A stretch of DNA of 64,000 nucleotides, taken from assembly GCF_000745015.1 (NCBI RefSeq), contig NZ_JQNA01000002.1, positions 5,766,001-5,830,000 on the forward strand. The letters run 5' to 3'. Positions within the stretch are counted from its first letter, which is position 1; the number at the start of each line of letters is the position of its first letter. A program made the translations under genes and the position numbers. A model generated the notes under the pieces. That model saw only the letters and a list, made by a program, of their open reading frames with translations, searched no databases and was not told where the DNA came from. The DNA comes from Burkholderia sp. 9120. GTDB taxonomy: Bacteria; Pseudomonadota; Gammaproteobacteria; Burkholderiales; Burkholderiaceae. Shown here in pieces: positions 807 through 37,757 of the stretch.

Positions 807-1280
807 ATGACAACCCGAAATCGCCCACTCGACAACCAGGATCGCAAGATCATGCGCGAGTTGCAGAAAAACGCGCGTCTGAGCAATGCGGAACTGGCCG
901 AGCTGGTGGGCATGTCGACCACCGCGTGCTGGAATCGCACGCGTCAGTTGGAAACGGAGGGATACATCCGCGGCTATGTCGCTTTGCTCGATCAGCAAAA
1001 GCTCGGTTTCGCGGATGTGGTGTTGCTGGAGGTCACGCTCGACCGTCACGACGACGACGCCCTCGCCCGCTTCGGCGCCGAACTCGCGACGCTGTCGGAA
1101 GTGCTCGAGGCGTATCTGGTGTCGGGCGACTACGACTATCTGGTCAAGGTGGCCGTGGACGGCACCGCGGGTTACGAGCGCTTTCTGCGCGAGAAGCTCT
1201 ACAAGATTGCCGGCATCCGGCATAGCCGCTCGATGTTCGCGCTGCGCTGCATGAAGAGCATTCCGTCGATTGCGGTGTAG
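807..1280 (+). CDS. Lrp/AsnC-family transcriptional regulator
   Basis: The 157-residue length is standard for the family. Residues 8-60 hold the N-terminal winged helix-turn-helix (LDNQDRKIMRELQKNARLS, then ELAELVGMSTTACWNRTRQLE). Residues 70-150 form the alpha/beta RAM effector domain with the family signature VSGDYDYLVKV. Lrp-type proteins form octamers or dimers and respond to amino acids. The gene is convergent with the TauD-type hydroxylase gene downstream (71-bp gap), so it need not control it. The effector is unknown. Confidence 0.9.
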   Translation: MTTRNRPLDNQDRKIMRELQKNARLSNAELAELVGMSTTACWNRTRQLETEGYIRGYVALLDQQKLGFADVVLLEVTLDRHDDDALARFGAELATLSEVLEAYLVSGDYDYLVKVAVDGTAGYERFLREKLYKIAGIRHSRSMFALRCMKSIPSIAV

Positions 1281-1350
1281 CGGGTTGCTGCGTCGCGCTT
1301 CGTCGGCTGCATCAGCGCATTAGGCAGATCGCTGTGACCGTGCCCCGCGC

Positions 1351-2337
1351 TCACGCGCCGTGCGCTTCCGCCATCGCCACGACAATTCGCCGAGGCCCCG
1401 AAAACGGCGCTCGGCCGTGCGTCAACAGCATGTTGTCGAGCATCATCACGTCGCCGCGTTGCCACGCGAAATCGAGTCGATGCGCGTCGTACACCGCACG
1501 CACGCTATCGAGTTCGGCGTCGGCGATCGGCGTGCCATCGCCGTAGTACACGTTGCGCGGCAAATCTTCTTCTTCGACGAGGTCGAGCAGCGCCTCGCGC
1601 GTCGCGTCTTCCAGCGACGACACATGAAACAGATGCGCCTGGTTGAACCACACGTCCTCGCCGGTACGCGGATGCCGCGCGACCGCCTGGCAAATCTGCC
1701 GGGTGCGCAGATCGCCGTCTTCTTTCCACTCCCATTCGATCTGATGCGCGCGGCAATAGGCTTCGGCGACCGCCGTGTCTTCGGTGTTGAAGACCTGCTG
1801 CCACGACAGATCGAGTCCACTGCCGTAGTTGCGCACGTACATCAGCTTGCGATTCGCGAAGCGTTCGCGCAGCGCGGGATCGATGCCCTGATATACGGCG
1901 CGCGCGTCGGCTACCGGTGTTTCGCCGCGATCGCCAGGCGCGACGTCGCAGTAGAACCAGATTTTCATCGGCCAGTTCGTCGTGTACGCCTGCTCGTTGT
2001 GCTGCGGAATCCACTGATGCGCCGGATAGTCGGTCGACGAATAGACACCCTTCGTCACTTCGCTGCGCGGCGTCGAGCCGAACTCGTACGACAGCAGTGG
2101 CGAGCCAAAGCTCTTGGCGAATTCGTGAAAGCGTTCAATGCTCATGTCGGCGAAACCGCGCAGCAGCACACCGCCGTCGCGGGCGAGATGCTCGTGGATC
2201 GAAGCGTGCCAGCCGCGATCGAGAATGTCGCTGGCGTCGGCGGGTGCGTTCATGACCGGCAAACGCGTGCGGCCTCGCTGGAACGCGGTATCGGCGAGCT
2301 GGATCTCAGCGGGTGCTTCCCGGATGTCATTCGACAT
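1351..2337 (-). CDS. TauD/TfdA-family Fe(II)/2-oxoglutarate dioxygenase, clavaminate-synthase-like
   Basis: A 328-residue non-haem iron hydroxylase of the double-stranded beta-helix fold. The iron triad is visible as H113-x-E115 (PQHNEQAY) and H307 (LLTHGRAPF), with R316/R317 placed to hold 2-oxoglutarate. HxE instead of HxD is the hallmark of the clavaminate-synthase-like branch (AsnO, VioC and SyrP-like enzymes), which beta-hydroxylates amino acids, often for siderophore or NRPS precursors. A predicted Fur box lies about 140 bp upstream, inside the end of the preceding MFS gene, which supports an iron-acquisition role. Substrate unknown; aspartate or another amino acid is an inference. Confidence 0.85.
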   Translation of the reverse strand: MSNDIREAPAEIQLADTAFQRGRTRLPVMNAPADASDILDRGWHASIHEHLARDGGVLLRGFADMSIERFHEFAKSFGSPLLSYEFGSTPRSEVTKGVYSSTDYPAHQWIPQHNEQAYTTNWPMKIWFYCDVAPGDRGETPVADARAVYQGIDPALRERFANRKLMYVRNYGSGLDLSWQQVFNTEDTAVAEAYCRAHQIEWEWKEDGDLRTRQICQAVARHPRTGEDVWFNQAHLFHVSSLEDATREALLDLVEEEDLPRNVYYGDGTPIADAELDSVRAVYDAHRLDFAWQRGDVMMLDNMLLTHGRAPFSGPRRIVVAMAEAHGA

Positions 2338-2473
2338 ACGTGGCTCCTGAATTGAGTGAGTCGATTCGCGCCGCGAAGCGCACCGGCCGACGCGTACCTA
2401 AGTCGATTCGATGCAACTCCGGGATGACTCAGCGAATGCAACCCGGTGGTAAATCGATTTTTGCGATGATACT

Positions 2474-2492
2474 GATAATGATTCTCATTTGA
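2474..2492 (-). promoter_or_regulatory. Predicted Fur box upstream of the TauD-type gene
   Basis: GATAATGATTCTCATTTGA matches the 19-bp consensus GATAATGATAATCATTATC at 14 positions, including the whole left half. It overlaps the stop codon of the MFS gene (2485-2487) and lies 137-155 bases before the dioxygenase start. This suggests a separate iron-repressed promoter for that gene inside the operon. Confidence 0.7.
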
Positions 2493-3726
2493 TAGTGGCA
2501 CGCAACGGCTTCTGACACGCGGCCAATACCGCGCCGGCCGCGAGCAGTAGCGCGGAGTAGACGAGCCCGCGCGCGAGACCGGCGCCGTCCGAGACCCAGC
2601 CGATCACCATCGGCCCGACGATCTGCCCGAACGCGAAGACGATCGTGAACGCGCTGATGCCTTTGGCCCAGTGACTCGCGGGCAGGTTGTGGCGCACGAA
2701 TGCGGTGGTCGACGCGACGGCCGACAGGAAGGTCGCGCCGAACAGCACGCCGGACACGAACGCCACCCACGGCTGAGTAAACAGCGCGGGCAGCAAGGTC
2801 GCGATGGCGAGCAGCGCGTTGAGCACCGCGAGCGCCTGGCCGCCTCGCATTCGGTCGAGCAGGCTGGACCATATGCGCGCCGACATCACCGTCGCCACGC
2901 CGAGCAGCAGATAAAACCCCGTGACGACGACCGCGCTCATGCCCGCGTTGCGCAGCAGCGCCACGATGAACGTCATATAGCCGATGTAACCGACACCGAA
3001 CAGGCCATAGCCCGCCAACGCGAGGCCGAAACGCGGCCAACGCGGCGCGTCGGCGTGAGCGGTTGCGCGCGTCGCCGGATGGGCGGCGGGATGTACGCGC
3101 TCGATCTTGCGCGCCGCCTGAATCGCCACCGCGGCGAACGCCGCGCACGCGACGGCCAGCGCGAACCACGCGAACTGCCAGCCGTGCGCAACGTTGATGA
3201 TCGTCACCGGCACCAGTACCGACGACGCGACGATTCCCCATCCCGTGCCGCCGTAGTACAGACCGAGCACGAGACCGGCGTCGTGCGGTCTCGCCGACGC
3301 CAGACGCGCCGCCAGCACGCCGCCGCTGATGAAAATCGCCGCGCTGGTCGCGCCGGTGATCACCCGCAAGGCAAGCAGCGAATGCGTGTCCGCAAGCAGG
3401 CCGCTGACGGCCATGAGCAGCGTCGTGGCCGCGCAGCCGACACCAAACAGGACGCCCGACGACCAGCGGCGCGCGAGCGGCGGGAACGCCAGCGCGCCGA
3501 GCAGATAGCCCAGCGCGTTGGCGGTGTTCATCGCGCCGGCCTGCGCGAAGCTCCAGCCGAGGTCGAGCTTCATCGACGGCAATAGCAGCGCGTAAGCGAA
3601 GCGGGCGAGTCCCAGCGCGATCGCGCTGCCTAGTGAGAGCGCGGCGGCAAGCATCAGGGTCGGGAGACGGTGCGCCGCTTCGGAGTCCGTGGCGGACACG
3701 GCGGCGTCGAGTGATTTTGTCGGCAT
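2485..3726 (-). CDS. YbfB/YjiJ-type MFS transporter
   Basis: A 413-residue, 12-helix major facilitator. The first helix region reads GSAIALGLARFAYALLLPSM, the signature of the YbfB/YjiJ group, and the LGYLLGALAFPPLARR segment corresponds to the conserved loop 2-3 region. These are inner-membrane proton-driven exporters of mostly unknown substrates. It is transcribed from the intergenic region holding the second Fur box and precedes the dioxygenase gene on the same strand (147-bp gap). Export of a small product such as a siderophore is a reasonable inference from context only. Confidence 0.85.
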   Translation of the reverse strand: MPTKSLDAAVSATDSEAAHRLPTLMLAAALSLGSAIALGLARFAYALLLPSMKLDLGWSFAQAGAMNTANALGYLLGALAFPPLARRWSSGVLFGVGCAATTLLMAVSGLLADTHSLLALRVITGATSAAIFISGGVLAARLASARPHDAGLVLGLYYGGTGWGIVASSVLVPVTIINVAHGWQFAWFALAVACAAFAAVAIQAARKIERVHPAAHPATRATAHADAPRWPRFGLALAGYGLFGVGYIGYMTFIVALLRNAGMSAVVVTGFYLLLGVATVMSARIWSSLLDRMRGGQALAVLNALLAIATLLPALFTQPWVAFVSGVLFGATFLSAVASTTAFVRHNLPASHWAKGISAFTIVFAFGQIVGPMVIGWVSDGAGLARGLVYSALLLAAGAVLAACQKPLRATIK

Positions 3727-3939
3727 GGGCGGGCGGAAGTGGGCAAGGAAGCTGCAGACCGGTTGTGCCGCAAACGCTGATTACGGCACCTCGCCATCAT
3801 ATCCGGGGACGCCGGGCGGGGCTGACAGTTAGTTGCTTTTTATGAGTCGAGCCGATTCCGTTTGGCTCGACCTCCGGCCGCGAACGGCTTAACGGACAAG
3901 CCCAAGGCCAACAACTATCATTACTGACACCCAAGACTA

Positions 3940-3958
3940 AATGCGAATGATTTGCATT
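3940..3958. promoter_or_regulatory. Predicted Fur box in the divergent nitroreductase/MFS promoter region
   Basis: AATGCGAATGATTTGCATT is a near-palindrome (outer arms AAATGC/GCATTT at 3939-3959) typical of Burkholderia Fur sites. It lies 53-71 bases before the nitroreductase start and about 215-230 before the MFS start. A possible plus-strand promoter, TTGCAT (3952-3957), 17 bases, CATTAT (3975-3980), would be occluded by Fur bound here. Confidence 0.7.
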
Positions 3959-4010
3959 TACGAGATAATTAGCCCATTATTCAGCCCATACCTTCAGTCG
4001 AATACACGCC

Positions 4011-4670
4011 ATGACCACGCTAGACATCAGCCGCCTCGAACCCGCACTTCCCGCGACCGCGAAACCCGGCGCCACCGCCACGCCCCATGCATCGGCAGCG
4101 CTCGAGGTGCTGCTGTCGCGCCAATCGCATTGGCCGCTCACCGAACCCGGCCCGGCCGACGCCGAACTCGATCTGATCTTCGACGCCGCGTTGCGCGCGC
4201 CCGATCACGGCAATCTGCGGCCATGGCGCTTCGTCACGATTCGCGGCGAAGCACGCGGTGCGCTCGGCGACCTGCTGGTCGATCTGGCCAGCGCGCGTTC
4301 GCCCGAGGAACCGCGCTCCGCGCACGCGCATCGGCGGCAAAAGGCCTTCGCGGCGCCGCTCGTGATCGCACTCGGCGCGGCCGTGACGGCGCATCCGAAA
4401 GTGCCGGAAATCGAGCAACTGCTGGCGGCCGGCGCGGCAACGATGAACATGCTCAACGCGATTCATGCGCTCGGCTACGGCGGTTTCTGGGCCACGGGAC
4501 CGGACAGCTATGAAACGCGTCTGCACGACGCGCTGGGCTTCGCGTCGAACGAGCGTCTGCTCGGCTTTCTTTTTGTGGGCACGGCGAAAACGCCCGGTCA
4601 GGCACCGGTGCGGCCGTCGCGTAGTGCGCACGTGCGTGAATGGTTGCCATCGCAACCAGCCCGAAACTAA
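4011..4670 (+). CDS. YdjA-type nitroreductase-family flavoprotein
   Basis: A 219-residue FMN-dependent nitroreductase-fold protein with a roughly 30-residue N-terminal extension. Family marks are LLSRQSHWPLTEPGP (compare RRS near the YdjA start), ALRAPDHGNLRPWRF (phosphate/FMN contact), the mid-protein helix AAGAATMNMLNAIHALGYGG with FWATG, and LLGFLFVGT near the end. YdjA-group enzymes are small, often lack a known substrate, and reduce or dehydrogenate small molecules with NAD(P)H. It is the first gene behind the Fur box and is followed by a 159-residue unknown protein, so it is probably made under iron limitation. Confidence 0.88.
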   Translation: MTTLDISRLEPALPATAKPGATATPHASAALEVLLSRQSHWPLTEPGPADAELDLIFDAALRAPDHGNLRPWRFVTIRGEARGALGDLLVDLASARSPEEPRSAHAHRRQKAFAAPLVIALGAAVTAHPKVPEIEQLLAAGAATMNMLNAIHALGYGGFWATGPDSYETRLHDALGFASNERLLGFLFVGTAKTPGQAPVRPSRSAHVREWLPSQPARN

Positions 4671-4797
4671 TACAAGCCATTGACGCACACGTTGCGTCAT
4701 CGCCCTTGCGTCGCAAGCGACAAGCGCTGGCCTGCGACGCGGCAGCTACTCAATCCGGCCGGCGCGACTCATGGACCGTGTCCATTCAGGAGCCTCG

Positions 4798-5277
4798 ATG
4801 AACTTTCGCTCTCACTACAGCAGCCGTCCCGAACTGATCGACGATCATCCGACCGACACCACCGACGCGCCCGAGCGCACCGTCCTCAGCGCCGTTCGCA
4901 CCTGGCTGCGGCCGGCCTGCGAATCGGCACGCGGCGGCGTGCAATGGCGCGACATTCTGAGCGGTGTCGGCTTGCGACAGGACGGCATAGAACATTTTGA
5001 TTTGCTGATGCGCTCGCTAATGCACGTGTCCTATCGTCCGCTCGACATGCGTTGCCGTTGCGCCAGCGATCTCGGCAAGGACGAAGCCGTCATTTTGCAG
5101 ACCATCGCGTTGCTGCAAAAAACGCATAGCGGCGCCGCGTTGCGCATGTTGAGCGAGTGGCTGCCCTCGCCCGCGGTCAGCGGCGTGCTGAAGCTGATCC
5201 GCTGGTTCGCGATCGATCTGCTGGACGCCGGCATGGAACTCGACGTGCAAGCGCGTCGCGTGACCTACATGCATTGA
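4798..5277 (+). CDS. Unknown 159-residue, mostly helical protein
   Basis: ATG 4798 is chosen because AGGAG sits 7-8 bases upstream and the following residues begin the soluble protein (MNFRSHYSSRPELID). The C-terminal two thirds are amphipathic helices with a conserved-looking centre CRCASDLGKDEAVILQTIAL and an ending LIRWFAIDLLDAGMELDV. A CRC motif could bind metal, but no complete binding site is evident. It lies between the nitroreductase and the PPTase-like gene (11-bp gap to the latter) and almost certainly shares their transcript. I do not recognise the family; function unknown. Confidence 0.7.
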   Translation: MNFRSHYSSRPELIDDHPTDTTDAPERTVLSAVRTWLRPACESARGGVQWRDILSGVGLRQDGIEHFDLLMRSLMHVSYRPLDMRCRCASDLGKDEAVILQTIALLQKTHSGAALRMLSEWLPSPAVSGVLKLIRWFAIDLLDAGMELDVQARRVTYMH

Positions 5278-5288
5278 GGACGCAGCCC

Positions 5289-6107
5289 ATGTCACTGGAA
5301 TTGGACCTGGCTGCGCCGACGTCCTCGCGCGTGCGCGACGGCAGCGATGCGCGTGCGACCGAACCCGCGGCGAACAGCGCCCGAATCGCGCACGCTATCG
5401 TCACTGCCGCACCGCCCGTTTTCTCTTCTCACTCACTGACGCGCCACTATCCGCGTGGCGTCACCGCGCCGCGCGCGGGCGAGTTGCATCTGTGGCGATT
5501 TCGCTGCGAATGGTTGCCGGTGCCGGTGCAGGAGGGCGACGGCTGGCTGTCGAAGACCGAGCGCGAACGTGCGCGATTGCATCCGAACGCCGCGTTGCGC
5601 AAGCGCTTTGTCAGCGCGCGCGTGGTGGCGCGCTGGATCGTCGCGAATCTGTTCGACTGCGCGCCGCGCGACGTCGATCTGCAGGACGACGGCAACGAGA
5701 AACTGCGCGCACGTCATCCTCATGACGGCCGCGGCATGACCATCGACATCGCTTACGGCGGTATCTGGATCGTGGTGGGCGTTGCATCGGCCACGCTGGG
5801 CTTGAGCGTCATCGTGCCGTCACCCGGCGCAAGTGCCGACGAGACGCCGGAAGGCGCGCGCCGGCGTGCACGTTATGGCAGCCTCTGTAATGCGCTGCGT
5901 TATGCGCCGGTGGATATCGACATGGATCTGCTGTTGAGCAACACCGCGAGTTGCGCATTCGACCTCGCGGAGCATGGCCGCTGGCATGTGTTCGATCTGC
6001 CGATGGGCGGCAAGATTCGCGCGGCGGTGGCGCTCGCGCAGCCGGTTACGCAAGTGCATACCTTCGGTTGGCCGAAGTCTCTGGCGATCGGCGAAATCAA
6101 CCCCTAG
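5289..6107 (+). CDS. Degenerate 4'-phosphopantetheinyl transferase-like protein
   Basis: A 272-residue protein starting at ATG 5289 (GAGGA upstream). Residues about 64-175 follow the N-terminal half of Sfp-type PPTases: HLWRFRCEWLPV, then SKTERERARLHPNAALRKRF with a long helix VSARVVARWIVANLF, then IDIAYGGIWIVVGVA where NVSHS...VAV is expected. The catalytic pieces are missing: GVDIE is replaced by GLSVIV (171-176) and there is no WxxKEA segment. It may be a catalytically dead scaffold or regulator. It ends 21 bp from the tail of an intact PPTase on the other strand. The PPTase relation is inferred by eye. Confidence 0.6.
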   Translation: MSLELDLAAPTSSRVRDGSDARATEPAANSARIAHAIVTAAPPVFSSHSLTRHYPRGVTAPRAGELHLWRFRCEWLPVPVQEGDGWLSKTERERARLHPNAALRKRFVSARVVARWIVANLFDCAPRDVDLQDDGNEKLRARHPHDGRGMTIDIAYGGIWIVVGVASATLGLSVIVPSPGASADETPEGARRRARYGSLCNALRYAPVDIDMDLLLSNTASCAFDLAEHGRWHVFDLPMGGKIRAAVALAQPVTQVHTFGWPKSLAIGEINP

Positions 6108-6128
6108 CCGGCCAACGTCTATCGCGGT

Positions 6129-6830
6129 CTATCGCGCGAAGGTGGCGGTTGACCACGCCACGCACGCCGAATAGGCGTCTGGCGCTGCGATCCACTGTGC
6201 GGCGATTTCGCGCATATCGTCCGGAATCCGATTGCTCAACGTCACCTGGCTACCTTCACGCGGCAGCACCGTCAGGTACTGCAAACCACGCGAGATGCCC
6301 GCGCCCGTTGTCTTGACGAGCGCTTCCTTCGCCACCCAGGCTTCGTAAAACGCAGCGGTCTGCTGCATCGCATCGCGGCGTTCGAGCCATGCCACTTCGG
6401 TGGGGTCGAGCGTCAACGCTGCAATCGAACGCCAATCGAATCCATCGCGCTGCTGTTCGATATCGACGCCGACGCGCCGAACCGGCGACATCGCGATCAA
6501 GCCATGCGCCCCCGCGTGCGATACGTTGAAATCGAAGCGGGCCGAGTCCGCCAGACGCGGACGGCCATTTCCGTCCTGAGCAAAACGTATGGCGTGAGCG
6601 GTGATGCCAAGGCGTTGCGCGAGCAGTTCACGCAGCGCGGCACGCACGCTCGCGAAACGCACCGTGTCCTCATGGTGGAGAAATCTGCGGGCACGGGCAC
6701 GCTCGTCGTCGCTAAGGGAGGCGAAGACGGTCGCGTCGCTCAGCGACGCATCAAAGGCAAAATCGATCCGCCACAACGAAATATCGGACGGACCGTCGTG
6801 CGGCAAAAGAACAGGTTCGATGGAATGCAT
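6129..6830 (-). CDS. Sfp-type 4'-phosphopantetheinyl transferase
   Basis: A 233-residue enzyme that transfers phosphopantetheine from CoA to the serine of carrier-protein domains of NRPS, PKS or fatty-acid synthases. All motifs are present: NVSHAG at 102-107, GVDIE at 121-125 (Mg2+ ligands) and FYEAWVAKEALVK at 161-173. The size fits the short Sfp/group I class; PobA of Burkholderia cenocepacia, needed for ornibactin and pyochelin, is a precedent. It is convergent with the degenerate paralogue. No NRPS lies in the window, so its carrier proteins must be encoded elsewhere. Confidence 0.92.
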   Translation of the reverse strand: MHSIEPVLLPHDGPSDISLWRIDFAFDASLSDATVFASLSDDERARARRFLHHEDTVRFASVRAALRELLAQRLGITAHAIRFAQDGNGRPRLADSARFDFNVSHAGAHGLIAMSPVRRVGVDIEQQRDGFDWRSIAALTLDPTEVAWLERRDAMQQTAAFYEAWVAKEALVKTTGAGISRGLQYLTVLPREGSQVTLSNRIPDDMREIAAQWIAAPDAYSACVAWSTATFAR

Positions 6831-6925: not shown

Positions 6926-8254
6926 TCAGATGCGCTTCATGTCCTTCGGTACGCCGAGCAACAACGCCACGCCGCTCACGAACAGCAACCCGCTCAGCAG
7001 ATACAGCGCGTTATCCATACTGCCGGTGTGCGTCTTGATCAGTCCGATCACCCACGGACTCACAATGCCGCTCGTAATGCCGATGCTGCTGATCAACGCG
7101 ATCCCCGCCGCCGCCGCCGTGCCGGACAGATAACCCGACGGCACCGTCCAGAAGATCGGCAGCGCCGCGAAGATCAACACCGAGGCCAGCGAAAGAATCG
7201 CGAGCATCGCGGGAAAGCTGCTCAGATGCAGCGTCAGCAGCGAAAGCGCCACGCCGCCGCCAATCGTGCAAACGGCAAAATGCCGGCGACGTTCGCCGCG
7301 GCGATCCGAGTGACGCGCGATCAGAATCAACCCGACCGCCCCGATTGCATTGGGAATCACGGTGTACAGACTGATCGCCACCACGTCATGCACGCCGAAG
7401 TCGCGGATCATCAGCGGCATCCAGAAGTTCAGCGTTAGCGAGGCGCAGGTCAGCGAGAAGTAGATGAACGCGAACAGATAGACGCGCGGATTGCGCAACG
7501 CGTGCAGAAACGAGCGCGACGAATGCGCATCCGACGAAGCCCGGCGCCCTTCGTCGCGTTGCGCGATCAGTTGCGCTTTTTCGTCGGCGCTCAGCCAACT
7601 GGCGTGCTGCGGACCGTCCACCAGATAGAACGCGGCGAGCAGGCCGAGCACGATCGCGGGCGCGCCTTCGATCACGAACATCCACTGCCAGCCGAACAGG
7701 CCCAGCACGCCGCCCATGTCGCGCATGATCCAGCCGGATACGAGACCGCCGAGCACGCCCGCCACCGCGACGCCCGCGAAAAAGATCGACAGCACGGCCG
7801 CACGCCGCCGCGCCGGATACCAATACGTCAGATACAACACGATGCCGGGAAAGAACCCCGCTTCGAACACGCCGAGCATGAAGCGCAGCAGATAGAAGTG
7901 CGACGGCTTCGACACCAGCATCATGCCGACCGACGCAATGCCCCACAGCAGCATGATCCGCGTGAACGTGCGGCGCGCGCCGAAGCGTGCCAGAAGCATA
8001 TTGCTCGGTACTTCACAGATCACATAGCCGACGTAGAAAACCGCCGCGCCGAGGCCATACATGGCGTCGCTGAAACCGAGGTCGTGCTTCATCTGCAATT
8101 GCGCGAAGCCGATATTGATGCGGTCGAGAAACGACACTACGTAGCAGAGAAACAGAAACGGAATGATCCGCAGCGAGACCTTGCGATATAACAGGTCGTC
8201 GTGCGCGGCAGCGGAGGCGCCCGGCTCGAGCGCGGGGGCGAGGGATTGGCTCAT
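6926..8254 (-). CDS. MFS transporter, anion:cation symporter (phthalate/glucarate permease) family
   Basis: A 442-residue 12-helix permease with RIIPFLFLCYVVSFLDRINI in helix 1 (the DR-NIG signature of the ACS family) and FGARRTFTRIMLLWG in loop 2-3. ACS members import organic anions such as aromatic acids and sugar acids. A clear RBS (GGAG) precedes the start. It is the last gene of the unit MBL protein - FAD hydroxylase - DUF2783 - MFS, so it likely imports the aromatic substrate of the hydroxylase. A tandem degenerate repeat occupies the 254-bp gap before it. Confidence 0.9.
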   Translation of the reverse strand: MSQSLAPALEPGASAAAHDDLLYRKVSLRIIPFLFLCYVVSFLDRINIGFAQLQMKHDLGFSDAMYGLGAAVFYVGYVICEVPSNMLLARFGARRTFTRIMLLWGIASVGMMLVSKPSHFYLLRFMLGVFEAGFFPGIVLYLTYWYPARRRAAVLSIFFAGVAVAGVLGGLVSGWIMRDMGGVLGLFGWQWMFVIEGAPAIVLGLLAAFYLVDGPQHASWLSADEKAQLIAQRDEGRRASSDAHSSRSFLHALRNPRVYLFAFIYFSLTCASLTLNFWMPLMIRDFGVHDVVAISLYTVIPNAIGAVGLILIARHSDRRGERRRHFAVCTIGGGVALSLLTLHLSSFPAMLAILSLASVLIFAALPIFWTVPSGYLSGTAAAAGIALISSIGITSGIVSPWVIGLIKTHTGSMDNALYLLSGLLFVSGVALLLGVPKDMKRI

Positions 8255-8407
8255 CGATTATCTCCAAACGTGAGGGTCCAACGGACCCGCCGGGTCCGGC
8301 GTCTTGATGCGCCGCGTTGTCGTCGTCTACGTGGACGGCAGGCGGCGTTGTTACGCCGCGTCGCCGCTGTGAATGGCGCGCGGCTCGAATGGCCACGCGC
8401 GTGTTTG

Positions 8408-8515
8408 TGCTGCTTTTAACGGTGCTTTTTTAATGCTGCGTTTTAATGCGGTTTTCTAACGCTGCTTTTTAACGCCGCGGGCTTAAACCGCTGGCTTAAA
8501 CCACTCGCTTAAGCC
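8408..8515. repeat. Eight degenerate 13-14-bp tandem units with TAA cores
   Basis: AT-rich cores recur with near-perfect spacing. The first A of each TAA is at 8418, 8432, 8445, 8458, 8471, 8485, 8498 and 8511 (steps of 13 or 14). The first five units read like GCTGCTTTTTAACG and the last three like CGCTGGCTTAAAC. The final unit overlaps the stop codon of the DUF2783 gene. Confidence 0.65.
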
Positions 8516-8745
8516 GCGAGCGAATGCGCCTGCGTGTCTCGCGCTGAAACGTCGATTACCCCGTCGCGCGCATGCTGCACGGCTTCGAGTAGCGTCGCGT
8601 GATCGCCAATATGGTTGGCGAGCAATAGAATCAGTTGCGCATTCGCCGACTGGCTCTGCGCCTCGTCGAGATCGCGATGCATGTCGATCAGCGCTTCGTA
8701 GAAATCGTCGGGGCGCGTGAGATTCGGTTGCGTGTTCAGTGTCAT
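8509..8745 (-). CDS. DUF2783-family small protein
   Basis: A 78-residue helical protein (PDDFYEALIDMHRDLDEAQS, then LILLLANHIGD) with an excellent RBS (AGGAGA). DUF2783 proteins regularly sit beside an FAD-dependent aromatic hydroxylase and an MBL-fold protein, exactly as here. Their role is not established; an accessory or regulatory subunit is a guess. It lies between the hydroxylase (93 bp upstream) and the MFS gene. Confidence 0.8.
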   Translation of the reverse strand: MTLNTQPNLTRPDDFYEALIDMHRDLDEAQSQSANAQLILLLANHIGDHATLLEAVQHARDGVIDVSARDTQAHSLAA

Positions 8746-8837
8746 GTCTGTCTCCTGCTATTTTTTGCCGATGCCTTGCCGTGGTCGCAACTGTGCCGCG
8801 TGCCTGGGCCAACGGTCCAAGCTCCAGGCTCCAGACT

Positions 8838-10577
8838 TCAGGCCGTCCCTTCGACGCACAATGCGCGTTTCAGCGCCTGCGTTACCGCGTCCGCATCGAG
8901 CTGCCGCCAACGCGCGCACACATGCTGGTCCGGCCGGATCAGATAGAACGTGCCGGGTTTGGCGTCATAACGTGCGTTCGCATGACCATCCGCGTCGTGA
9001 GCGACTCTCACACTCGCCGAATGCGAAACTGAAATCGACGCGGAGGCCAGAACAGCCGCCTGCAGATCACCGCTCGTCACCACGACAAGCTTCAACGGAA
9101 TCGGCCCGGTGTTCAGCGCATCCAGCGCGGCGCGCGTCGCCTGATCGACACCTTGCTCACCGCAGAACAACACGCCGGTGAACTGCTGACCGAGTTGCTG
9201 CAACAACCAGGCCGGTTGCGCGGCCACCAGAACCGGCGCATCGACGCACGACGCGCCCGGCACCATCGCCCCTTCGAAGCGATCGCCGTCCGCGGTATTG
9301 AGCGGCGAATCGCGCAACACCGCCGGCACCGACAGGCGCCCGCTATTCGCCAATTGCCGCGCAAACGGATGCTGCCGCGAGAGCTTCAGCACCGCATCGC
9401 GGAACACGCGACTCACGGGACTCTTCGGCGTAATGAAATCGGTGGAGCGGGTGGAGTTGCGGATGTTTTCATCGGCGGCGAATTCGCGTTCGCTCGCGTA
9501 GGTGTCGAGCAGCGCGTCGGACGCGTTGCCTTCGAGCACCATCGCCAGTTTCCACGCGAGATTTTCCGCGTCCTGTACGCCACTATTCGCGCCGCGTGCG
9601 CCGAACGGCGACACGCCGTGCGCGGAGTCACCCGCGAACAGCACGTTGCCGTGCCGGAACCGATCCATGCGCAAACACGAAAACGTGTAGACGCTGACCC
9701 ATTCCAGTTCGAACTTCGCATCCGCGCCGAGCAACGCGCGCACGCGCGGAATCACCCGCTCCGGGGTCTTTTCGAGTACCGGATCGGCGTCCCAGCCCAA
9801 CTGGAAATCGATCCGCCACACGTTGTCCGGCTGACGATGCAGCAACACCGATTGGTTCGGATGGAACGGCGGATCGAACCAGAACCAGCGCTCGGTTGGA
9901 AAGTCCGCTTCCATCTTCACATCGGCGATCAGGAAACGATCCTTGAACGTGACGCCCTTGCTGTCGAGTCCCATCAGCGTGCGCATGGGGCTGCGCGAGC
10001 CGTCGGCGGCAACGACATAGCGGCCGCGCAACGGGTACGGTCCGTTGGGTGTATCGACCGTCAACGTCACGCTGGCATCGTGTGTGCCCGGCGCGCCGTT
10101 CTGCTGCACGCCCACCACTTTGCTCTTCCAGCGGATCTCGAGATTCGGCAATGCCTGCGCACGTTCGAGCAGAAAACCTTCGACGTAATACTGCTGCAGA
10201 TTGATAAACGCGGGCCGGTTGTGACCCGCTTCCGGCTGCAGGTTGAACGTGTAGACCAGCTCGTCTTTCAGAAACACTTTGCCGACGTTCCAGCTAATGC
10301 CCTTCTCCACCATCCGCTGACCGCAACCCAGTCGATCAAAAATATCGAGCGACCGCTTCGAAAAGCAGATTGCCCGCGAGCCGGTGGACAACGAACAATC
10401 GTCGTCGACCAGCACGACCGGCACGCCCTGCTGCGCGATATCGATCGCGGTGGCCAGGCCCACTGGGCCCGCACCGACCACGATCACCGGATAAGCCGCC
10501 TGCTCCGCGCCGCCGTGCGCGCTTTGCTCGCGGCACGGCTGGTAGTCGAACGACAGCGTCTGGTAGTTGATGCTCAT
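8838..10577 (-). CDS. FAD-dependent aromatic hydroxylase (MhpA/phenol-hydroxylase-like)
   Basis: A 579-residue class A flavoprotein monooxygenase. Residues about 29-50 hold the dinucleotide-binding VIVVGAGPVGLATAIDIA. The second FAD motif is NVLFAGDSAHGVSPFGARGA around residue 310, with the expected DAENLAWKL helix after it. A C-terminal thioredoxin-like domain ends in FYLIRPDQHVCARW, as in 3-(3-hydroxyphenyl)propionate hydroxylase and phenol hydroxylase. It should use NAD(P)H and O2 to hydroxylate a phenolic compound in the cytoplasm. The exact substrate is unknown. It follows the MBL gene with a 49-bp gap. Confidence 0.88.
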   Translation of the reverse strand: MSINYQTLSFDYQPCREQSAHGGAEQAAYPVIVVGAGPVGLATAIDIAQQGVPVVLVDDDCSLSTGSRAICFSKRSLDIFDRLGCGQRMVEKGISWNVGKVFLKDELVYTFNLQPEAGHNRPAFINLQQYYVEGFLLERAQALPNLEIRWKSKVVGVQQNGAPGTHDASVTLTVDTPNGPYPLRGRYVVAADGSRSPMRTLMGLDSKGVTFKDRFLIADVKMEADFPTERWFWFDPPFHPNQSVLLHRQPDNVWRIDFQLGWDADPVLEKTPERVIPRVRALLGADAKFELEWVSVYTFSCLRMDRFRHGNVLFAGDSAHGVSPFGARGANSGVQDAENLAWKLAMVLEGNASDALLDTYASEREFAADENIRNSTRSTDFITPKSPVSRVFRDAVLKLSRQHPFARQLANSGRLSVPAVLRDSPLNTADGDRFEGAMVPGASCVDAPVLVAAQPAWLLQQLGQQFTGVLFCGEQGVDQATRAALDALNTGPIPLKLVVVTSGDLQAAVLASASISVSHSASVRVAHDADGHANARYDAKPGTFYLIRPDQHVCARWRQLDADAVTQALKRALCVEGTA

Positions 10578-10626
10578 CTTATGTCTCCGTCCTGCTCTTC
10601 TCGGCGTCGCTATAGTGCGGTGGGGA

Positions 10627-11586
10627 TCAGGCTTGCAGCGCGTCCCACATGTCCTTGTCGCGTTGCGCGGTCCAGATGCGCGGATGCGTAATGCCGCTCG
10701 CTTCGTCGAATGCGCGCGACACGTCGAACGGCAGGCAATGCTCGTAGATGAACACGTGGCCGAACTTCGGGTCCATTGCCTTGCGCGTGTGCGCCATTGC
10801 GGCCTTCAGATCGAGTTTCTGTTCGACGGCTTCACGACCTTGCTGCAGCAGCGTGGTGACGAAGTCTTTCGTGTAGTCGAGACCCTTGTTGACATCTTCC
10901 GGCGTGGTCAGCGCGGGGCCACGGCCCGGCACCAGCTTGTCGGCCTGCAGCGCGCGCAGCGCTTCGAGCGTGGCCGGCCACTGTTCGAGTTGGGCGTCGC
11001 CGCAATAACACGCTGCGTCGTACTCGACCAGATCGCCGGAGAACAGCACCTTCTGCGACGGCAGCCACACGACCGTGTCGCCCTTCGTGTGCCCGGCGCC
11101 GAGATGCGCGATGCGCACTTCGAGCTTGCCGAGAAACAGCGTCATTTCCTTCTCGAACACCAGCGTCGGCCACGTCAGGCCCGGCACTGTTTCGACACCG
11201 GCAAACAGACGCGGGAAGCGTTCGATTTCCGACTTCATGTCCGCCTCGCCGCGCTCGACGATCATCTCGTACGTGCCGCGGCTCGCGATCACCTGTTGCG
11301 CGCCTTCTTCGAAATACGCCGACGCGCCGAGCACACGCACCGCGTGGTAATGCGACAGCACGACGTATTTGATCGGTTTATCGGTAACGCTGCGGATCTT
11401 CGCGATGAGGTCTTGCGCCATGGCCGGCGTGGCGGTGGTGTCGACGATCAGCACGCCGTCGTCGCCGATGATCACGCCCGAGTTCGGATCGCCTTCCGCG
11501 GTGTACGCGTAGGCGTTCTCGGACAACTTCGTCCACGTGACTTTCTTGACTTCCAGATCGGCCTGGGATGCGAATGCCTTTGCCAT
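10627..11586 (-). CDS. Metallo-beta-lactamase-fold hydrolase-like protein with altered metal motif
   Basis: The start at 11586 (MAKAFASQ) is preferred over one five codons upstream because GGGAG sits at the right distance. The 319-residue protein has the MBL fold: IIGDDGVLIVDTTATPAMAQ, then SHYHAVRVLGAS, then LGAGHTKGDTVVWLPSQKVL and FSGDLVEYDA. In the key loop the usual HxHxDH reads HYHAVR, so the first two histidines are kept but Asp and the third His are lost. This affects the second zinc site. It heads the hydroxylase operon, divergent from the IclR pair. Role unknown. Confidence 0.82.
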   Translation of the reverse strand: MAKAFASQADLEVKKVTWTKLSENAYAYTAEGDPNSGVIIGDDGVLIVDTTATPAMAQDLIAKIRSVTDKPIKYVVLSHYHAVRVLGASAYFEEGAQQVIASRGTYEMIVERGEADMKSEIERFPRLFAGVETVPGLTWPTLVFEKEMTLFLGKLEVRIAHLGAGHTKGDTVVWLPSQKVLFSGDLVEYDAACYCGDAQLEQWPATLEALRALQADKLVPGRGPALTTPEDVNKGLDYTKDFVTTLLQQGREAVEQKLDLKAAMAHTRKAMDPKFGHVFIYEHCLPFDVSRAFDEASGITHPRIWTAQRDKDMWDALQA

Positions 11587-11740
11587 GCTTGTCTCCCTCA
11601 AAAGTTGGACGTGAGGCGAGACGGCCGGCTGCGCACGGAATGCGCGGGCTGACGGTATTGGAGGATTGTCTCGCCCCGTTTTGACTCTGTGACTGCGCCG
11701 GTGTGTCGGGGTGAATGCATCTTATGGCTGCGCGAGTTTA

Positions 11741-30371: not shown

Positions 30372-30646
30372 CCAACAATCACGCCCACCAATAGATCGAT
30401 TTGCGTTTTCCATATACGCAGACTGCGCAATGCATGATGCAAACCAACGTTGTCCCGCGCGAACCGCCGCTACGACATCGACCTCGTACTTTCGAGCATG
30501 AGAATCACGCGTTTTTCATCGGTCGATAGCAGATTTAATTGATTGATCCAGGGCGCATCCCTGCCATAGATTCGACCTGTGCGTCGCCAACCTTGGCGAT
30601 GATCCGCCGGAGTCTGCTCCGGTTTGCGAACGAACAGGGAGTCGAC

Positions 30647-37342: not shown

Positions 37343-37693
37343 TCAGCTACCGAAGTACAGATTGCAGTAGCTGACCGGCCCGACACAACCCGCGTTCATC
37401 GTCGTATGTACCGGACGGCCGGACGACGAGCTGCCGTTCTGAGCCACACCGCCATACGACGATTGCGTCGCTTGCTGCGGGTCTTGCGCGGCAACCTTCG
37501 CTTCGGCTGCCTGAATGTCGGCGGGGTAGGTGGCGTCGTCGCTCGTTGACGGGTTGTAGCCAGCCTGTTCGACACGTACCAGGTCGGCGCGCACTTCAGC
37601 GCGCGTCACCGGCGCATTCGATTGTGCGAAGCTGAGAACAGGGGTAGCCAATGCGCCAGCGGCGAGAGCGAAACAAACGAGAACGTTTTTCAT
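37343..37693 (-). CDS. DUF4148 secreted protein with CVGP-YFGS tail
   Basis: A 116-residue protein with a signal peptide (NVLVCFALAAGALATPVLSF, cut after AQ) followed by the DUF4148 pattern APVTRAEVRADLVRVEQAGY and a predicted helix with AAEAKVAAQ. DUF4148 proteins are abundant, short, periplasmic or secreted, and of unknown function in Burkholderiaceae. The last 14 residues, CVGPVSYCNLYFGS, are nearly identical to the tail of the neighbouring 49-residue protein. The two cysteines could form a small disulfide loop. Confidence 0.85.
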   Translation of the reverse strand: MKNVLVCFALAAGALATPVLSFAQSNAPVTRAEVRADLVRVEQAGYNPSTSDDATYPADIQAAEAKVAAQDPQQATQSSYGGVAQNGSSSSGRPVHTTMNAGCVGPVSYCNLYFGS

Positions 37694-37757
37694 GATTCAG
37701 TTTCCTTTATGACTTGGTGAATTAGAGGGCAACGATTGCCCTAATGAAGTTGATACG

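What the first reader, a model, noticed from the sequence alone, without database searches (positions are those of the whole stretch)
1351..6830. Fur-linked cluster of hydroxylase, exporter, nitroreductase, unknown protein and two PPTase-fold proteins without an NRPS
Two predicted Fur boxes (2474-2492, 3940-3958) flank a gene set that looks like siderophore accessory functions: an HxE amino-acid hydroxylase, an MFS exporter, a YdjA-type nitroreductase, an unknown 159-residue protein, a degenerate PPTase and an intact Sfp-type PPTase. No assembly line, receptor or TonB gene is present. Either it serves an NRPS encoded elsewhere, or it is an independent iron-starvation system built on amino-acid or carrier-protein modification.
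Basis: partly seen in the sequence, partly recalled or inferred. Interest (0 to 1): 0.75.

Follow-up and report, generated by a model that had tools for sequence, protein, structure and literature searches.

The report
Stranded siderophore genes serving distant assembly line
These iron-starvation genes look like a detached accessory set for an iron-scavenging molecule whose assembly line lies about 170 kb away, and one of them is an amino-acid hydroxylase left behind when an older siderophore cluster was deleted.

Summary
The genes are real and the Fur link holds for two promoters. Box 1 (TauD) matches the E. coli consensus at 16/19; box 2 (MFS/nitroreductase) matches the Burkholderia orbS box at 17/19. 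A Fur-like box (12/19 or more) precedes the nitroreductase at 50 of 55 loci, some genomes counted twice.

The assembly line is elsewhere. About 170 kb away lies a graminine (gramibactin-type) NRPS cluster with GrbD, GrbE, receptor and two Asp-type modules but no TauD. The window holds the only siderophore-type TauD and only Sfp-type PPTase found in the genome.

TauD is a relic. In a relative, a complete NRPS siderophore cluster sits between the window's Lrp and MFS genes. The window keeps TauD and that cluster's thioesterase promoter with its Fur box, with about 40 kb gone. TauD remains under strong purifying selection (dN/dS 0.06-0.10). A second, apparently independent case is the P. graminis group: nine genomes with grb clusters lacking TauD and a stranded TauD elsewhere.

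Nitroreductase, U159 and a degenerate PPTase form a conserved Fur-linked module, sometimes beside grb clusters. U159 is a new Fur-linked family reaching Azospirillum. What these three do is unproven.

The parts
807..1280 (+). Lrp/AsnC-type regulator; left anchor of the locus (flank, not claimed as part of the pathway)
   Evidence: PF01037 and HTH hits; syntenic anchor in G022 and in G127, G071, G146, G151; blastn
1279..1336 (.). deletion junction: in G146 the ECF sigma and MbtH genes of an NRPS cluster lie here
   Evidence: blastn: window 807-1278 = L050 12549-12078 and window 1337-2380 = L050 11090-10043; sigma and MbtH by Pfam
1351..2337 (-). TauD/OrbG-type Fe(II)/2-oxoglutarate hydroxylase, predicted aspartyl beta-hydroxylase for the distant graminine siderophore NRPS
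   Evidence: PF02668; catalytic residues 39 of 39 rows; only homolog in the genome of an in-cluster TauD; tree; dN/dS
2381..2422 (.). deletion junction: thioesterase coding region lost
   Evidence: gap between the two blastn blocks 1337-2380 and 2423-2497 against L050
2423..2497 (-). relic of the thioesterase promoter of the deleted NRPS cluster, now upstream of TauD; it also covers the stop codon of the MFS gene
   Evidence: 78.7% identity to L050 9212-9286, sequences printed
2468..2486 (-). Fur box 1 (16/19; overlapping 15/19 at 2474-2492)
   Evidence: same box 149-157 bp upstream of TauD in the window, G022 and G127
2485..3726 (-). MFS_4 (YbfB-type) transporter, possible siderophore exporter (substrate not tested)
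   Evidence: PF06779; box 2 at 12/19 or more upstream of 14 of 14 orthologs, window included; the two other rows labelled MFS4 are 28-29% paralogs and lack it
3943..3961 (-). Fur box 2 in the divergent MFS/nitroreductase promoter (13/19 E. coli, 17/19 orbS)
4011..4670 (+). NTR: YdjA-type nitroreductase-family flavoprotein
   Evidence: PF00881 over cut-off; 59 of 144 genus genomes at 59% identity or more
4798..5277 (+). U159: helical protein of a new Fur-linked family
   Evidence: no Pfam or NCBIfam match, no significant PDB sequence match; AF2 pLDDT 79.8, no fold match; alignment A4
5289..6107 (+). dPPT: PPTase-fold protein without the ACPS catalytic domain signature
   Evidence: no PF01648 hit; weak HetI hit over its N-terminal part only, 20.7 bits; AF2 model matches Sfp at Foldseek E 5.8e-9
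6129..6830 (-). Sfp/HetI-type 4'-phosphopantetheinyl transferase, the only one found in the genome; no Fur box of its own
   Evidence: PF01648, PF22624; genome-wide PF01648 gives only this and an AcpS; Fur best match 11/19

Best explanation
The locus is an accessory module that works in trans with a graminine (C-diazeniumdiolate) siderophore NRPS about 170 kb away, with TauD and the MFS/NTR-U159-dPPT promoter under Fur. When iron is scarce, Fur leaves both boxes. TauD beta-hydroxylates the aspartate carried by the NRPS, giving the beta-OH-Asp iron ligand; the Sfp-type PPTase (no Fur box seen at this copy) charges the NRPS carrier domains; the MFS protein may export the product; NTR-U159-dPPT support the pathway in an unknown way (my guess: NTR reduces the ferric siderophore or its N-O group). 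TauD was not born with this cluster: it is the one biosynthetic gene kept when an ornithine-hydroxamate siderophore cluster between Lrp and the MFS gene was deleted, and it now sits behind that cluster's old thioesterase promoter. Shown computationally: gene content, boxes, deletion junctions, selection, distribution. Inferred: all catalytic roles, export and Fur binding.
For: (1) Genome context. GrbD- and GrbE-like, FAAL-NRPS, MbtH, TE, TonB receptor and ABC genes at C2:5555-5600 kb, two Asp-type and two graminine-type A domains read by eye, no TauD there. PF02668 hits twice in the genome at E 0.001: the window gene and a gene directly after a PvcA-family gene. PF01648 hits the window PPTase and an AcpS. 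(2) Origin. G146 has an NRPS cluster with Orn monooxygenase, GNAT acyltransferase, sigma factor and MbtH (Pfam), thioesterase, receptor and ABC genes between the same anchors; window pieces match it in order with three gaps and keep the TE promoter's Fur box; the tree puts window TauD with the three such cluster-borne copies, 100/99. (3) Use. dN/dS 0.06-0.10 among the three stranded copies. G135 and G071 grb clusters have TauD between TE and GrbD; those of G127 and G022 and G000 do not. (4) Distribution. TauD (40% identity or more) and MbtH: both 65, TauD only 2, MbtH only 5, neither 72 of 144. (5) A second case: all 9 genomes of the P. graminis group have a stranded TauD, 7 of 9 with an orbS-type Fur box of 16-17/19; in contrast, of 45 TauD rows only 8 reach 12/19 to the E. 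coli consensus, six of them stranded copies. (6) P. phosphatilytica carries relatives of TauD, PPTase, NTR, U159 and dPPT in the grb cluster itself.
Against: No expression, binding or chemistry was measured. TauD's substrate is inferred; the published siderophore-hydroxylase HMMs were not available. The A-domain codes were read by eye; one of eight is unassigned, and position 278 of the graminine code agrees only with a one-residue shift. 3 of 40 GrbD genomes have no TauD of 40% identity or more. The window PPTase shows no Fur box (11/19), and the P. phosphatilytica PPTase is only 37% identical. Nine of 59 NTR genomes and 42 of 94 U159 genomes lack MbtH, so these are not tied to NRPS siderophores alone. 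A second NRPS (frame of 2833 aa at C2:6.09 Mb) could also be a client of the PPTase. The MFS gene is absent from the P. phosphatilytica cluster and its substrate is unknown. Co-occurrence counts are not corrected for relatedness.
Confidence: 0.78

Rival explanations
1. TauD and its box are only decaying debris of the deleted cluster and do nothing now; the graminine siderophore of this strain carries plain Asp or uses another hydroxylase.
For: The deletion junctions are real; 3 of 40 GrbD genomes have no such TauD.
Against: dN/dS 0.06-0.10 among three stranded copies, against 0.13-0.16 among three copies still in clusters; Fur box kept in all three; catalytic residues intact; no intact TauD was found in a genome without MbtH apart from G144, an 86% complete assembly (G008, the other TauD-only genome, has it in pieces); no other siderophore-type TauD in the genome.
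Confidence: 0.13
2. The six genes are an independent iron-starvation system that modifies free amino acids or carrier proteins and has nothing to do with the NRPS 170 kb away.
For: NTR occurs without MbtH in 9 of 59 NTR genomes, and U159 as first gene is Fur-boxed in many genomes.
Against: NTR and MbtH co-occur (50 both, 9 NTR only, 20 MbtH only, 65 neither; relatedness not corrected), NTR lies within 12 kb of GrbD in 13 of 40 GrbD genomes, and the P. phosphatilytica cluster unites five of the six genes with a grb cluster.
Confidence: 0.09
3. NTR-U159-dPPT form a general iron-economy module that merely hitch-hikes with siderophore genes; only TauD and PPTase serve the siderophore. (This rival concerns only part of the locus and can hold together with the best explanation.)
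For: U159 is Fur-boxed as first gene next to cyo-like genes in L031-L036, in other genera, and in three Azospirillum plasmids next to pqi genes.
Against: NTR is present in 35 of 40 GrbD genomes against 24 of 104 others and is directly divergent from mbtH in P. graminis C4D1M and relatives.
Confidence: 0.4

Closest known systems
Gramibactin / megapolibactin / tistrellabactin biosynthesis (grb, mob clusters)
   Same: GrbD and GrbE homologs, graminine-type A domains, MbtH, TE, receptor; beta-OH-Asp ligand in the known products; GrbE fused to an NRPS N-terminus as in MobF (PMC10391617, passages)
   Different: Here eight A domains with two Asp-type ones; no TauD in the cluster, the candidate lies 170 kb away in the window; MobD of Tistrella is in its cluster
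Malleobactin/ornibactin clusters (mba, orb), MbaH/OrbG hydroxylase
   Same: TauD-type alpha-ketoglutarate hydroxylase next to MbtH and ECF sigma in intact clusters; Fur box of the orbS type (PMC4786211, passages)
   Different: In the window the NRPS, sigma and MbtH are gone and TauD alone remains; it comes from a related but distinct Orn-hydroxamate cluster (52-60% identical to the copies in mba-like gene order)
YdjA-type nitroreductases (PRK10828)
   Same: PF00881; best PDB relatives are NAD(P)H nitroreductases and YdjA
   Different: 130.5 bits against a PRK10828 cut-off of 183; Fur box and siderophore linkage
Sfp/HetI-type PPTases
   Same: window 6129-6830 has both PPTase domains; dPPT has the fold
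   Different: dPPT lacks a PF01648 match and the catalytic ACPS motifs

Membership tests
Siderophore aspartyl beta-hydroxylase (TbetaH_Asp, OrbG/MbaH type) | TauD-family domain | tested here: met
   PF02668, 156 bits against cut-off 27
Siderophore aspartyl beta-hydroxylase (TbetaH_Asp, OrbG/MbaH type) | H-x-E...H iron site and 2-oxoglutarate Arg | tested here: met
   H113, E115, H307, R316 identical in 39 of 39 rows; their roles are recalled from the family, not tested
Siderophore aspartyl beta-hydroxylase (TbetaH_Asp, OrbG/MbaH type) | groups with hydroxylases encoded inside siderophore NRPS clusters | tested here: met
   tree of 33 rows, window clade with three in-cluster copies 100/99
Siderophore aspartyl beta-hydroxylase (TbetaH_Asp, OrbG/MbaH type) | score over the published TBH_Asp/IBH_Asp HMM | not tested
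   those antiSMASH models are not among the libraries on hand
Siderophore aspartyl beta-hydroxylase (TbetaH_Asp, OrbG/MbaH type) | hydroxylates carrier-bound Asp | not testable with these tools
   needs enzyme assay
Graminine siderophore cluster (at C2:5555-5600 kb of the genome, not in the window) | GrbD: HDO plus cupin protein | tested here: met
   476 aa; P. graminis C4D1M copy 66% identical in the best segment; Cupin_2 hit just below cut-off (24.5 against 27.2); HDO part not tested by itself
Graminine siderophore cluster (at C2:5555-5600 kb of the genome, not in the window) | GrbE: YqcI/YcgG-type Arg hydroxylase | tested here: met
   PF08892 at the N-terminus of the first NRPS
Graminine siderophore cluster (at C2:5555-5600 kb of the genome, not in the window) | graminine-specific A domain | tested here: inconclusive
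   two A domains read DVH(A/R)TGLVA by eye against DVHRTGLVAK in PMC10391617
Sfp-type PPTase (6129-6830) | ACPS domain plus PPTase N-terminal domain | tested here: met
   PF01648 57.6 bits and PF22624 42.5 bits, both over cut-off
Sfp-type PPTase (5289-6107, dPPT) | catalytic ACPS domain | tested here: not met
   no PF01648 match at E 0.1; only 11 invariant columns among 23 rows of A3, none in the D-x-E / K-E pattern that the intact PPTase shows (read by eye)
Sfp-type PPTase (5289-6107, dPPT) | PPTase fold | tested here: met
   Foldseek against Sfp 4mrt E 5.8e-9, prob 1.00
PRK10828 YdjA equivalog (NTR) | score over NCBIfam cut-off | tested here: not met
   130.5 bits against 183; the broader PF00881 cut-off is met
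Fur regulon (TauD; MFS/NTR promoter) | Fur box in promoter | tested here: met
Fur regulon (window PPTase) | Fur box in promoter | tested here: not met
   best match 11/19 in 300 bp upstream; 13 of 29 PPT rows reach 12/19, 11 of them of the divergent grb-linked or NTR-linked type (one search list)
Fur regulon | Fur binding and iron response | not testable with these tools
   needs EMSA and RNA-seq

The most novel reading that the evidence does not exclude
NTR, U159 and the dead PPTase form a new iron-starvation machine: a flavin reductase, a previously undescribed helical Fur-linked protein (found from Paraburkholderia to Azospirillum) and a PPTase pseudoenzyme that acts as receptor for carrier-bound or ferric N-O/N-N siderophores, reducing them to release iron or recycle the graminine ligand.
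Probability: 0.2. Interest if true: 0.8.

Novelty: new variant of a known kind. Interest (0 to 1): 0.62.

Why it matters
Gramibactin contains D-threo-beta-OH-Asp, yet the grb cluster as described in the passages I saw names no hydroxylase, and I found none near grbD in P. graminis C4D1M or in the window genome's cluster. The data point to one specific stranded gene in each genome, testable with one deletion. They also suggest the same event twice: a siderophore cluster is lost, its Asp hydroxylase stays behind a leftover Fur box, and a graminine cluster without a hydroxylase of its own appears to use it. Cluster-based genome mining can miss such split pathways. U159 is a highly constrained Fur-linked family with no known fold or function, so it opens a new question in bacterial iron biology.
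Full report
WHAT IS THERE. The six genes and two Fur-like boxes are confirmed. The window lies at C2:5766001-5830000 of an 8.46 Mb two-contig genome. It is most likely a Paraburkholderia: relatives that I tied to named records include Paraburkholderia sp. BL21I4N1, P. bryophila and P. graminis. Box 2 equals the Burkholderia orbS Fur box at 17 of 19 positions (box sequence and the '13/19 may be functional' statement from PMC4786211, passages). The intact PPTase has no such box (11/19).

THE ASSEMBLY LINE IS ELSEWHERE IN THE GENOME. At C2:5555-5600 kb there are a periplasmic binding protein, ABC protein, TonB receptor, AraC regulator, three NRPS frames of 5590, 2575 and 4109 aa, a GrbD-like protein, a YqcI/YcgG (GrbE-like) domain fused to the first NRPS, a thioesterase and MbtH. 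By eye the eight A domains read Gra, Thr, Asp, Asp, unassigned, Thr-like, Gra, Thr. This is a graminine-type lipopeptide siderophore cluster, not that of gramibactin itself, which has six residues (PMC9679993, passages). A 14/19 Fur box lies 123 bp before MbtH. No TauD lies in the cluster.

THE WINDOW HOLDS THE MISSING PARTS. PF02668 finds two genes in the genome at E 0.001: the window one and one directly after a PvcA-family gene, so PvcB-like. The in-cluster hydroxylase of G027 finds only the window gene, at 62% identity. PF01648 finds only the window PPTase and an AcpS (the neighbouring pdxJ was recognised by eye).

TAUD IS A SURVIVOR OF A DELETED CLUSTER. In G146 an NRPS siderophore cluster sits between the same Lrp and MFS genes: sigma factor, MbtH, TauD 91%, thioesterase, GNAT acyltransferase, Lys/Orn monooxygenase, NRPSs, receptor, ABC (stretches L049, L095, L050 with about 0.5 kb unread between them). 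Blastn places window 807-1278, 1337-2380, 2423-2497 and 2503-4039 on four separate G146 blocks in the same order. The lost pieces are sigma plus MbtH, the thioesterase, and about 40 kb on the NRPS side. Window 2423-2497 is the old thioesterase promoter with its Fur box. G022 and G127 share the arrangement. In the tree window TauD groups with the three cluster-borne copies, 100/99. dN/dS among the three stranded copies is 0.063, 0.084 and 0.098, against 0.13, 0.13 and 0.16 among the three cluster-borne copies.

COMPLEMENTARITY. Of 144 genus genomes, 40 have GrbD. A TauD of at least 40% identity lies within 40 kb in 20, elsewhere in 17 and nowhere in 3 (contig breaks make some 'elsewhere' uncertain). 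Clusters of G135 and G071 have TauD between TE and GrbD; those of G127 and G022 and G000 do not. In nine genomes of the P. graminis group (G006, G012, G025, G075, G090, G105, G122, G123, G161) the genome search gives one TauD each, on another contig than GrbD. It sits alone at one conserved place, with no sigma, MbtH or NRPS in the stretches read. Seven of nine have an orbS-type Fur box of 16-17/19; the other two reach 13 and 10. Other species have an mba/orb-like order (sigma, MbtH, TauD, ABC, NRPS) around their TauD, and the five stranded copies in the tree nest among these, 100/100 (four were fetched later and are not in it). P. graminis C4D1M itself is one of the nine (G428 = G090 by coordinates). 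Thus two lineages, apparently independently, kept a TauD from a lost cluster while carrying a graminine cluster without one. TauD and MbtH: 65 both, 2 TauD only, 5 MbtH only, 72 neither (relatedness not corrected).

NTR, U159, dPPT, PPTase. NTR at 59% identity or more is in 59 of 144 genomes. U159 lies within 2 kb of it in 43 of these 59. NTR is in 35 of 40 GrbD genomes and 24 of 104 others, and within 12 kb of GrbD in 13. Among 66 GrbD loci from named records, many truncated and some very distant, NTR covers more than half of the reference in 19, plus one partial match at a contig end; the records are called Paraburkholderia, Caballeronia or Burkholderia sp. (this set overlaps the unnamed one). 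P. phosphatilytica has NRPS-ABC-TauD-GrbE-GrbD-TE-MbtH-PPTase, Fur box, NTR-U159-dPPT in one place, without the MFS gene. Upstream of NTR, 50 of 55 loci reach 12/19 and 42 of 55 reach 13/19, against 11.2% and 3.8% of 1103 unlabelled genes (window included, some genomes twice). Ten of ten loci where U159 is not preceded by NTR (L027-L036) carry a 13/19 box; six of them (L031-L036) share one gene neighbourhood and are not independent. In other Burkholderiaceae genera five of six U159-led loci reach 12/19 or more (the sixth has a truncated call). Three of four Azospirillum relatives (33-34% identical) were read and have 14/19, 14/19 and 12/19. U159 is in 94 of 144 genus genomes, one of them a partial match. 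It has dN 0 against G022 and G127 with dS 0.10 and 0.27. dPPT is a PPTase fold without the catalytic domain signature.

MECHANISM AND ITS LIMITS. Fur control, hydroxylation of Asp by OrbG/MbaH-type enzymes (PMC4786211, passages) and carrier priming by Sfp-type PPTases are established roles of these families, but none was measured here. What NTR, U159 and dPPT do is a guess. I favour reductive handling of the ferric siderophore or its N-O group, with low confidence.

Noticed in passing
window 4798-5277; L027-L036, L186-L195, L196-L198: U159 is a separate Fur-linked family, often without NTR (next to cyo-like genes, recognised by eye, in L031-L036; next to pqi genes in three Azospirillum plasmids), with no amino-acid change against two close species.
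   Followed up: partly
L026 (G029) 10148-10264: NTR is reduced to a 39-residue match while U159 and the PPTase remain, in a genome with no GrbD, TauD or MbtH match: the module may decay where no siderophore NRPS is left.
   Followed up: no
G000:C1:167.7-169.8 kb (L169 195-2290): A PvcA-family gene (PF05141) followed by a TauD-family gene, suggestive of an isonitrile pathway in the same genome.
   Followed up: partly
G000:C2:6090-6096 kb (L047): A second NRPS frame of 2833 aa with three condensation-domain hits; the genome's one MbtH hit lies in the other cluster. Product unknown.
   Followed up: no
L044-L046 (G000:C2:5555-5610 kb): Graminine-type cluster with eight A domains, two of them Asp-type, and GrbE fused to the NRPS as in Tistrella MobF: possibly a new siderophore congener.
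   Followed up: partly
window 30392-30410 and 37679-37697: Two more Fur-box-like matches (15/19 to the orbS box; 13/19 to the E. coli consensus).
   Followed up: no
window 6926-11595: MFS, small protein, MhpA-like hydroxylase and metallo-hydrolase genes, often syntenic beside the module but without Fur boxes (0 of 23, 16 and 15 rows for MFS, MhpA-like and hydrolase at 12/19).
   Followed up: partly
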